A DNA stretch of 54,532 nucleotides from Gemmatimonadota bacterium (GTDB taxonomy: Bacteria; JAAXHH01), in assembly GCA_026706345.1 (NCBI GenBank), contig JAPOYX010000281.1, positions 1-54,532 on the forward strand, given 5' to 3'. A program made the position numbers and the translations under genes. Each line of letters opens with the position of its first letter. Position 1 is the first letter of the stretch. Shown one piece after another: positions 2,728 to 46,350 of this stretch. The notes beneath the pieces are model-generated. The model did no database searches, was not told the origin of the DNA, and worked only from the letters and a program-made list of their open reading frames with translations.

Positions 2728-4239
2728 TTACTTCTGCAGCCAATCCTTCAATCTACGGTAGCGGTCTTCCGGAACCTGTGTAATAGATTGCGGAGGACCT
2801 TCCAATATCCCGTTTTCTTGAAGCGTTTGGAGGTCTATGGGTTCGTTCAGATGTAGAGTAAGAAGGAAATCGATGACCTTCAATGGTTTTTCGCTGGAGT
2901 TTACCAGTTCCTCCAACTGTTTGCGAGTATAGGCGGAGCGCCTCGTCGTCAAAAGCATAAGTTCGTTCAACGTCGAGGCCTCTGTCACCCTTTCGACGAC
3001 ACCGACGGTACAAATAGACTGGGAGTGCGAACGCCGCTCATCCTGTGTGGTATAGAACAGGACAACGGAACCAGGTTCAAGTTTTGTGGTAGGCGCACGA
3101 CATATGTAGGTCTTCCGTATCGTATTGCCCGGTGTACGATTCACATCTGTCGAGGAACCTTCGAACAGCGACAATTGGCTGTCAGGAAAAGCTTCCGGAA
3201 ACAGTATCCTGTAAAACCTGGGAAGGATCGGAACTACGAATTTCCGAGCGTCCGGTCTATCATAGTACGCGGGATAAAACTGACGGTTGAACGCTACGGG
3301 ATCCTTCTGATACGACGTATCCGATCGGACATCCTTCCTCAATTCCTTCTCCAGGAGCCATTCACCGTCATCGAGTGTTCGCGTCTTTTGGAAACCATAC
3401 GTTTCCAGCAAACCGATCAACACGTGCTGTTTTTCGAATGCGGTCAGATATACGACTTCGATGTCGTTCGATCTGGACCACCACAGCACCTGCTTAAGCA
3501 GTTGTTCACCGAATTTCTCTCCTTGATACTCAGGCGCCAATTTGAAGGTGGACACTTTTAATATCTTGTCCGCCCTGGTTGCGCAGTCCGCCTCTTCTTG
3601 TGTTTCAGGTTTTCGAATCACAAGTCCCGCAAGCTTGGCATCGAATCTGATTACCCAGCAAGACCGATGGCTGTTGACGCATTTTTCCTCGAACCACTCG
3701 TTAAAACCAGGATAGTCTGCTCTGAGACTGTCAAAGAACACATCTTCAACGTCGATTTGATAAGCCGGCACTTCTTCGACGTAAGGCAGTTCGACGGTGT
3801 GGGATTCGTAAGTTCGACTTATGAAATCAACCGCATCTGCTACGCCGAATACTTTTCCTCCTAGGTTTCCTCGTTCAGCCCGACGTATCAATCCCGTATC
3901 TTCTGAAATCAGGAGATCGACCGCTTTCTTCTCCAATATTCCAAGAAGTTGCAGATCGCATCTGTCGTTTTCATTCCTGATGGAACCAAATCTGCAAATC
4001 AAGTCGGATTCGGAATCAATTGCTACATCGCGAAGGCGAACGTACTTCTCCAGTTTGCTGTATGTTAACCGACGTCGCGCGCTATCCCTGTCCCGATCGA
4101 TGTCTGCATAATTAGCATCGGACACGTGGAGAGTCAGATTGTGTTTCTGGCACAACTGCGCAAGAGATGCCGCCTGGGGGTCAACCGGTTTGGGATCTTC
4201 CAGTTTGATGGCTACGTTTGTGTCGAGGAGGATTTTCAC
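2728..4239 (-). CDS. PIN - GNAT - PUA-like three-domain protein
   Basis: The 503-residue protein starts with a PIN-type nuclease domain: LLDTNVAIKLED at 4-15, acidic residues around 92-95, and SEDTG at 112-116. A GNAT acetyltransferase domain follows (about 195-290) with the acetyl-CoA loop region EYQGEKFGEQLL and YGFQKTR near its end. The last 170 residues (about 335-503) look like an ASCH/EVE/PUA-type reader domain: a beta-rich stretch with LEPGSVVLFYTT and CTVGVVERV; this assignment is weaker. It overlaps the upstream ASCH gene by 59 nt and ends 1 nt before hsdM. PIN domains cut RNA and PUA-like domains bind modified nucleic acid in known families, so an RNA-targeting defence or toxin-like role linked to the R-M locus is plausible but inferred. 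Confidence 0.8.
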   Translation of the reverse strand: MKILLDTNVAIKLEDPKPVDPQAASLAQLCQKHNLTLHVSDANYADIDRDRDSARRRLTYSKLEKYVRLRDVAIDSESDLICRFGSIRNENDRCDLQLLGILEKKAVDLLISEDTGLIRRAERGNLGGKVFGVADAVDFISRTYESHTVELPYVEEVPAYQIDVEDVFFDSLRADYPGFNEWFEEKCVNSHRSCWVIRFDAKLAGLVIRKPETQEEADCATRADKILKVSTFKLAPEYQGEKFGEQLLKQVLWWSRSNDIEVVYLTAFEKQHVLIGLLETYGFQKTRTLDDGEWLLEKELRKDVRSDTSYQKDPVAFNRQFYPAYYDRPDARKFVVPILPRFYRILFPEAFPDSQLSLFEGSSTDVNRTPGNTIRKTYICRAPTTKLEPGSVVLFYTTQDERRSHSQSICTVGVVERVTEASTLNELMLLTTRRSAYTRKQLEELVNSSEKPLKVIDFLLTLHLNEPIDLQTLQENGILEGPPQSITQVPEDRYRRLKDWLQK

Positions 4240-44820: not shown

Positions 44821-44900
44821 AGCCTTCCGGTATAACCCCCTCATTCGATCCGCGAATGAAGTCCTTTCCAGACAACCGATACGTGGGATGCGGACACTCT

Positions 44901-45509
44901 CTACCCGCCCATCATGGCGATACGCCGCGCCATCCACTCTACGTAGGCCGTACGTGTCATTCCTCGCCTGTCTGCCTCGCTATCTATAAATACGGCCACG
45001 CCTTCGTCAATCGCCATATGTATGCGCACGCTTCGCCCGGACTGACGGATTAGCGGCACGGTCGTCAGTGCTTGTCCCGGTTCGGGACTTACCTGCTCCA
45101 GATCGCTTGGCTGAACGATCGAATCACCATCGGATTCTGTTTCGATAGCATAATCCCGTAGCGCCTCTTCGGCATTCAACAAGGCGTCATCAATGGTGTC
45201 TCCCATGGCGACGATACCCGGAAGATCGGGGAATGATACACCATAGGCACCTTTCACGCCATCGATCAAAGCGGGGTATCGGACTGCGTTACAATTGGAC
45301 ACACCCATTCCTCCTGTATCCTGTTTCGACCATTTTGCCTTCGATGCAATTGATCGTGCCACCGCCATTGACACCTTCCTGTGCCTCGGAAGTGTAATCA
45401 CACCCCGAATAATCGGGTGCCGGTAGATGTCATGTCTGGCCCCATGCCGGGACAGGTACCAACCTTCCTTCTTCAATCGTCGCCTGAGCCTGGTCGTGTT
45501 GGATTCCAT
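44901..45509 (-). CDS. hicAB: HicA-HicB toxin-antitoxin fusion in one frame
   Basis: One 202-codon frame encodes both partners. Residues 1-60 are HicA mRNA interferase with the catalytic His in SRHGARHDIYRHP and the helix KVSMAVARSIASKAKW. Residues about 70-202 are HicB: the degenerate RNase H domain (YPALIDGVKGAYGVSFPDLP and DDALLNAEEALRDYAIE) then a ribbon-helix-helix (SVRIHMAIDEG, RRGMTRTAYVEW). HicA normally ends at a stop near residue 60; none exists here. AGGAGG inside the joint stands 7 nt before an in-frame GTG at 45302, so free HicB (133 residues) may also be made. Upstream is mazEF, divergent. Confidence 0.85.
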   Translation of the reverse strand: MESNTTRLRRRLKKEGWYLSRHGARHDIYRHPIIRGVITLPRHRKVSMAVARSIASKAKWSKQDTGGMGVSNCNAVRYPALIDGVKGAYGVSFPDLPGIVAMGDTIDDALLNAEEALRDYAIETESDGDSIVQPSDLEQVSPEPGQALTTVPLIRQSGRSVRIHMAIDEGVAVFIDSEADRRGMTRTAYVEWMARRIAMMGG

Positions 45510-45621
45510 TAAGCCAAGTTATTTTGTGCAAATATATGCACATAAGCGATTCCTTGTAAACAGTTTCTTATTCAGTCGAGTTTCTTCTCCCAACCTCGAC
45601 TAATGGAATAACAAGGCCAAG

Positions 45622-45649
45622 TGTATACATCAGGTCTGACATGTATACA
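45622..45649. promoter_or_regulatory. inverted repeat between hicAB and mazEF
   Basis: TGTATACAT (45622-45630), 10 nt, ATGTATACA (45641-45649): a perfect inverted repeat of 9 bp arms, each arm itself near-palindromic. It lies 36 nt before mazE and about 110 nt from hicA. MazE and HicB both bind palindromes to repress their own operons, so this is a probable operator, more likely of mazEF by distance. Confidence 0.6.
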
Positions 45650-45685
45650 TACCGTATATCTACAGTGTATCTATAGGAGGCGTGC

Positions 45686-45925
45686 ATGAAATCCCGTACG
45701 AAAATGTGGGGCAACAGCCTGGCGCTGCGCATCCCGAAGCCGATCACGGTCCAGATGGGCGTCACCGACGATTCACCGGTGGTGCTGGTGTTGCGAGGCA
45801 GGGAATTGACCATCGTCCCGGTGGAATGTACCCGGCAAAGGCTTGTCGATCTGCTTCCGGGTGTCACGAAGCACAATCTGCACGGCCGGATTACGGTCGG
45901 AACCCCGGATCGCGGAGAAACGTGA
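45686..45925 (+). CDS. mazE: MazE-type antitoxin, AbrB/SpoVT fold
   Basis: This 79-residue protein has the swapped-hairpin DNA-binding start KMWGNSLALRIPKPI, the signature of AbrB/MazE antitoxins, followed by VLRGRELTIVPV and a C-terminal toxin-binding tail (LVDLLPGVTKHNLHG). GGAGG precedes the ATG at 45686. Its TGA overlaps the mazF start codon (TGATG), tying the two proteins' synthesis. It would neutralise MazF and repress the operon through the inverted repeat upstream. Confidence 0.9.
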   Translation: MKSRTKMWGNSLALRIPKPITVQMGVTDDSPVVLVLRGRELTIVPVECTRQRLVDLLPGVTKHNLHGRITVGTPDRGET

Positions 45926-46281
45926 TGCACAACGAGAACTACATCCCCAAACGGGGAGAATTGGTATGGATCTGCGCCCGTACGGGGGACGGATCAAACC
46001 TGTCCTCCGCATGCCCCGCCTTTGTGCTTTCACCCGGGTCCTACAACGCAAAGGTCGGCCTGGCCGTGCTCTGTCCGGTCGGCGACGAGGCGAAGGGGTA
46101 TCCATTCGAGGTCCCGATTCCCGCGGGAATGCCGGCTTCCGGCGTCATTCTGGCCGATCAGCTGGAAAGCGTGACGTGGCCGTCCTGTATACTGGAACCG
46201 ATCTGCAGCCTCCCCGCGGAAATCACGGAAGCTGTCCTGCGGAAGGCCGTGACATTGCTGGAGAGGGAAGACGGTCCTTGA
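45925..46281 (+). CDS. mazF: MazF/PemK-type mRNA interferase toxin
   Basis: This 118-residue endoribonuclease has the family pattern YIPKRGELVWI, ACPAFVLSPGSYN (the usual Arg-Pro-Ala is Cys-Pro-Ala here), GLAVLCPVGDEAKGYPFEV and SGVILADQLESVTW. The catalytic region is intact except for the substituted arginine in the 'RPAlVLSP' position, which could lower activity. Translation starts at 45925 and overlaps the mazE stop by 1 nt. A free MazF would cut mRNA and halt growth. Confidence 0.9.
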   Translation: MHNENYIPKRGELVWICARTGDGSNLSSACPAFVLSPGSYNAKVGLAVLCPVGDEAKGYPFEVPIPAGMPASGVILADQLESVTWPSCILEPICSLPAEITEAVLRKAVTLLEREDGP

Positions 46282-46350
46282 CGGTTGCGCGTTATTCAGG
46301 CAAACTTTTACGCTTCATGACGGTTGTGTGTTAATAGGACAGACTTTTCA
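46279..46350 (+). repeat. imperfect 39-bp direct repeat after mazF
   Basis: TGACGGTTGCGCGTTA.. at 46279 and TGACGGTTGTGTGTTA.. at 46318 are two diverged copies, 39 nt apart; both run on to A.ACTTTT. The first copy contains the mazF stop codon. Confidence 0.5.

What the first reader, a model, noticed from the sequence alone, without database searches (positions are those of the whole stretch)
44901..45509. HicA toxin and HicB antitoxin fused in a single frame
Seen: no stop codon separates HicA from HicB, and a strong AGGAGG plus in-frame GTG at 45302 lies in the joint. The cell could make a self-inhibited HicA-HicB fusion plus free HicB from one gene, so toxin is never made without antitoxin. 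Known HicAB loci are two genes. Proteolysis of HicB or the linker would be the trigger (inference).
Basis: partly seen in the sequence, partly recalled or inferred. Interest (0 to 1): 0.7.

Follow-up and report, generated by a model that had tools for sequence, protein, structure and literature searches.

The report
HicA-HicB fusion from a lost stop
In this uncultured bacterium a single base change has erased the stop codon between a bacterial toxin gene (hicA) and its antitoxin gene (hicB), so both are read as one protein; fused versions like this are already described, so it is a fresh example of a known kind rather than a new system.

Summary
One uninterrupted 202-codon minus-strand ORF (45509-44901) carries a HicA domain (catalytic His26 present), a short linker and a HicB domain, with a perfect Shine-Dalgarno and an in-frame GTG (45302) at the joint. 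The nearest relatives explain the joint: G005 (95% identical) and G006 (79%) have a TAG exactly where the window has CAG (codon 63), so this is a lineage-specific T-to-C stop loss in an ordinary two-gene hicAB operon. The SD and start at the joint are the ancestral hicB start, kept in all ten genus members whose joint could be read, seven of which no longer have an intact hicA. The claim that known HicAB loci are two genes is wrong: Gerdes 2024 (PMC10865869) defines Class 11 fusions, and I found two more clean fusions (L078, L083), both with an internal SD and ATG. Most likely the cell makes a fusion with HicA held by HicB, plus free HicB, and no free HicA: a disarmed toxin more probably than a proteolysis-triggered device, because hicA is lost repeatedly in this genus while hicB stays. 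A consensus error at one base is unlikely but not excluded.

The parts
44901..45509 (-). fused hicA-hicB ORF, 202 aa
45324..45509 (-). HicA toxin domain (residues 1-62; G23-x-x-H26 resembles the Gly22/His24 toxicity motif of Burkholderia HicA)
   Evidence: PF07927; alignment; PMC3969222
45321..45323 (-). codon 63: CAG (Gln) where G005 and G006 have TAG stop; first base is at 45323
45285..45323 (-). linker, residues 63-75, predicted disordered
   Evidence: AlphaFold pLDDT < 50 at residues 60-74
45310..45315 (-). AGGAGG Shine-Dalgarno of the ancestral hicB start
   Evidence: conserved GGAG 11-13 nt before the start in 10 genus members
45300..45302 (-). internal GTG start codon of hicB
   Evidence: start codon (ATG, GTG or TTG) at this place in 10 genus members
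44904..45284 (-). HicB antitoxin domain with probable C-terminal ribbon-helix-helix (residues 76-202)
   Evidence: PF15919
45525..45542 (-). palindromic putative operator TGTGCATATATTTGCACA, identical in G005, G006, G011 and G004
   Evidence: 0 of 200 shuffles within 3 mismatches
45531..45560 (-). promoter-like TTTACA-18-TATATT overlapping the operator (no more frequent than in shuffles)

Best explanation
An ordinary two-gene hicAB operon (HicB with probable C-terminal RHH, probably autoregulated at a palindromic operator) lost the hicA stop codon by a single TAG-to-CAG change in the window's lineage after it split from G005. Shown from sequence: the one-frame fusion, the polarity of the change, and conservation of the SD and start of hicB. 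Inferred: one mRNA is translated into a HicA-HicB-RHH fusion and, by internal initiation, into free HicB; HicA is covered by HicB in cis or in trans; no free HicA is made. The locus is therefore most likely a disarmed toxin that still makes functional HicB repressor/antitoxin, in a genus where hicA is repeatedly lost and hicB is kept.
For: One ORF with both Pfam domains. TAG at the same codon in G005 (95% identical) and G006 (79%), so T>C on the window branch. Internal SD plus start at the same place in 10 genus members. An identical 18-bp palindrome upstream of hicA in G000, G005 and G006, and directly upstream of hicB in G011 and G004, where hicA is cut out. hicA absent or reduced to a 3' remnant in seven of the ten genus members with a readable joint (G002, G003, G004, G007, G008, G009, G011), with at least three different boundaries. 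HicB stays under strong purifying selection, dN/dS about 0.05-0.08 among the full-length orphans G008, G011, G003 and G004. About 40 surveyed same-frame relatives are separated by one or a few stops, usually one; two independent clean fusions, L078 and L083, also keep an internal SD+ATG.
Against: No expression or toxicity data. HicA is intact and shows no damaging change (window/G005 dN/dS about 0.15), which would also fit a functional fusion. On the window branch four non-synonymous and no synonymous changes fall in the 12 linker codons against 0 and 6 in the 126 HicB core codons (post-hoc Fisher p = 3e-5); this could mean linker adaptation rather than mere decay. A consensus base error is not formally excluded.
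Confidence: 0.6

Rival explanations
1. Functional self-inhibited fused toxin (Class 11-like): HicB inhibits HicA in cis; a trigger (phage protein, proteolysis of HicB or linker) frees HicA activity.
For: Class 11 fusions exist and Gerdes proposes a CapRel-like mechanism. HicA catalytic motif intact. Cluster of linker replacements on the window branch. Two other fusions keep intact HicA motifs.
Against: Nothing shows a trigger. Within the genus the fusion is present in one species and the nearest relatives are two-gene. The genus trend is hicA loss. Free HicB from the internal start would further suppress toxicity.
Confidence: 0.2
2. Early pseudogene: the stop loss is neutral because hicA is already useless, and hicA will be deleted as in sister species; only free HicB matters.
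For: Repeated hicA deletion, and a stop-loss in a dead remnant (G002); orphan HicB under purifying selection; a frameshifted hicA with intact hicB in L075.
Against: The hicA domain in the window has no disabling change and few replacements, though a recent event would look the same.
Confidence: 0.13
3. Sequencing or consensus error: the true base at 45323 gives TAG and the locus is a normal two-gene hicAB.
For: MAG in 293 contigs; the difference is one base; no reads available.
Against: The window branch carries several real substitutions in the gene, so a genuine change at this site is far more probable than an isolated consensus error (inference). The stretch aligns to G005 over 44900-46309 with few gaps and the ORFs are intact. 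The same TAG-to-CAG difference is seen in the dead hicA remnant of G002.
Confidence: 0.07

Closest known systems
Class 11 HicA-HicB-DBD fused monocistronic modules (Gerdes 2024, PMC10865869)
   Same: N-terminal HicA, middle HicB RNase H-like domain, C-terminal DNA-binding region in one ORF
   Different: Here the fusion is one base away from a two-gene relative at 95% identity, and the ancestral hicB SD and start remain inside the ORF
Class 4 hicAB operons (two genes, HicB with C-terminal RHH)
   Same: Gene order, domains, and in G005 and G006 the same operator; these are its direct relatives
   Different: A stop codon separates the genes there
CapRel-SJ46 and EzeT single-chain toxin-antitoxins (as described in PMC10865869)
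   Same: Toxin and antitoxin domains in one polypeptide
   Different: Unrelated toxin families; activation or inhibition was tested there, not here
L078 (G893) and L083 (G424) fused HicA-HicB ORFs found here
   Same: Clean in-frame HicA-HicB fusion with an internal SD and ATG for HicB
   Different: Different HicAB subfamily (about 32-34% identity); independent events. L083 has no obvious start codon before its full HicA domain

Membership tests
Class 11 fused HicAB (Gerdes 2024) | single ORF with HicA N-terminal to HicB | tested here: met
[quoted passage not shown]
   No separate RHH Pfam hit for the window protein. PF15919 matches to position 122 of 123; in L078 that region also scores as RHH_5. 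Two C-terminal helices predicted. Best PDB folds are HicB antitoxins.
Class 11 fused HicAB (Gerdes 2024) | monocistronic operon | tested here: met
   Neighbouring mazEF is divergent and the GNAT gene is on the opposite strand. The internal hicB start means more than one product may be made.
HicA toxin family (PF07927) | match above curated cut-off and conserved Gly/His toxicity motif | tested here: met
   31.9 bits vs 27; G23 and H26 present; Gly22 and His24 needed in Burkholderia HicA. The spacing differs by one residue (G-A-R-H here, as throughout this subfamily).
Functional type II toxin-antitoxin module | toxic HicA neutralised by HicB | not testable with these tools
   needs expression
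Two-gene hicAB (Class 4) | stop codon between hicA and hicB | tested here: not met
   CAG in place of TAG at codon 63

The most novel reading that the evidence does not exclude
A just-born self-inhibited fused HicAB whose linker is being reshaped by selection after the stop loss. It would make fusion and free HicB in a set ratio and act as a triggerable defence protein, giving a single-mutation origin for Class 11 modules.
Probability: 0.15. Interest if true: 0.6.

Novelty: new member of a known kind. Interest (0 to 1): 0.33.

Why it matters
It catches the step from two-gene to fused HicAB: one transition at a stop codon, with the two-gene form at 95% identity in the nearest relative and the antitoxin's own start still inside the fused gene. 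That gives a direction (two genes to one) for a kind of transition whose direction Gerdes 2024 left open for the related Class 12. The genus also offers an experiment of nature: intact, fused and toxin-less versions of one locus, with the antitoxin kept under selection after the toxin is gone.

Tried and rejected
AlphaFold on 26 sequences gave usable domain folds but pTM 0.42, so the docking of HicA on HicB in cis cannot be judged. L075 looked fused (no stop) but its hicA is frameshifted, so it is a broken hicA, not a fusion. HP1, Paracoccus and Sinorhizobium hits also looked like candidates but have a stop between the domains, or separate or broken frames. Local RNA structure at the joint is not unusual (z -0.49) and leaves the SD unpaired. 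dN/dS on the window branch alone has too few changes to date the fusion.

Full report
Observation. The minus-strand ORF 45509-44901 codes for 202 residues without a stop. Pfam places HicA_toxin at residues 8-59 and HicB_lk_antitox at 78-193, both above their cut-offs. The joint has AGGAGG (45315-45310), seven bases, then GTG (45302-45300), in frame.

Where the fusion comes from. The window lies in a MAG (G000, 293 contigs). Its nearest named relatives in the genome collection are Candidatus Latescibacterota MAGs. Ten of eleven other genomes of the same genus have the locus. In G005 (95% identical protein) and G006 (79%) the same frame runs through both genes except for one TAG; the window has CAG at that codon (63). 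With G006 as outgroup the change is on the window branch. No other stop lies between hicA and hicB, so this one transition makes the fusion.

The internal start is ancestral. In ten genus members, including seven where hicA is gone or only a 3' stub remains, GGAG lies 11-13 bases before an ATG, GTG or TTG at the place of GTG45302. Free HicB is therefore very probably still made. The joint RNA is not unusually structured and the SD is unpaired. An identical 18-bp palindrome, TGTGCATATATTTGCACA, overlaps a promoter-like -10 upstream of hicA in G000 and is also present in G005 and G006. In G011 and G004 it sits directly before hicB with hicA cut out. This fits autoregulation by HicB (inference).

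Is HicA still a toxin? The G-x-x-H-D-x-Y motif is intact. Gly22 and His24 of Burkholderia HicA are needed for toxicity (PMC3969222); the spacing here differs by one residue, as in the whole subfamily. Window/G005 dN/dS is 0.15 for hicA and about 0.03 for HicB. AlphaFold gives a HicA-like fold, a disordered linker 60-74 and a HicB-like fold, with low pTM (0.42), so docking is unknown. The best solved matches are HicB and HicA chains of known complexes.

Genus context. hicA is missing or reduced to a remnant in G002, G003, G004, G007, G008, G009 and G011, with at least three kinds of deletion boundary; G010 was not readable at the joint. The dead remnant of G002 also shows CAG for TAG. The full-length orphan HicBs (G008, G011, G003, G004) evolve with dN/dS about 0.05-0.08, so HicB has a use without its toxin (inference). 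In G007, G009 and G002 the HicB frame is shorter or altered. More distant relatives also show broken or truncated hicA next to hicB (L025, L026, L028-L030, L034, L075). This makes disarming or decay of hicA the leading reading of the stop loss. Against it, four replacements and no silent change hit the 12 linker codons on the window branch (small numbers, chosen after the fact), which could be adaptation or relaxed constraint.

How common are fusions? In surveys of about 1,460 genomes around four distant relatives roughly 40 loci match both domains in one frame, nearly all interrupted by one or a few stops, usually one. Clean fusions were L078 in G893 and L083 in G424, both from another HicAB subfamily and both with an internal SD+ATG before HicB. 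Gerdes 2024 had already defined Classes 11-13 of fused HicA/HicB; Class 11 matches this architecture. The premise that HicAB loci are always two genes is therefore wrong.

Judgement. Real feature; a Class 11-like fusion made by one stop-loss mutation; new member of a known kind. Mechanism (inferred): fusion plus free HicB, no free HicA, most likely a disarmed toxin. A functional, triggered fusion remains possible. A base error is unlikely but only reads can exclude it.

Noticed in passing
45686-46281 (+): A mazE-mazF pair lies divergently next to the hicAB fusion; a mazE-like gene also lies divergently beside hicB in several genus members (L008-L011, L013, L015).
   Followed up: partly
L008, L009, L010, L011, L013, L014, L015: hicB is kept after hicA has been deleted, at least three times independently in one genus, and the full-length orphans are under strong purifying selection; the orphan antitoxin probably has another use.
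   Followed up: partly
L075 (G893 C38, locus 1273-2058 +) and L078 (1357-2328 -): One MAG carries both a frameshifted hicA before an intact hicB of the window's subfamily and, 29 kb away, a clean HicA-HicB fusion of another subfamily.
   Followed up: partly
L009 and L011, about 2939-3118 (-): A second, distant HicA-like gene lies about 1 kb beyond the orphan hicB in G011 and G004.
   Followed up: no
L039 (S. meliloti Ak57 pSymB): hicA is broken by a small deletion and frame change while hicB is intact, compared with strain USDA1021 (L038).
   Followed up: no
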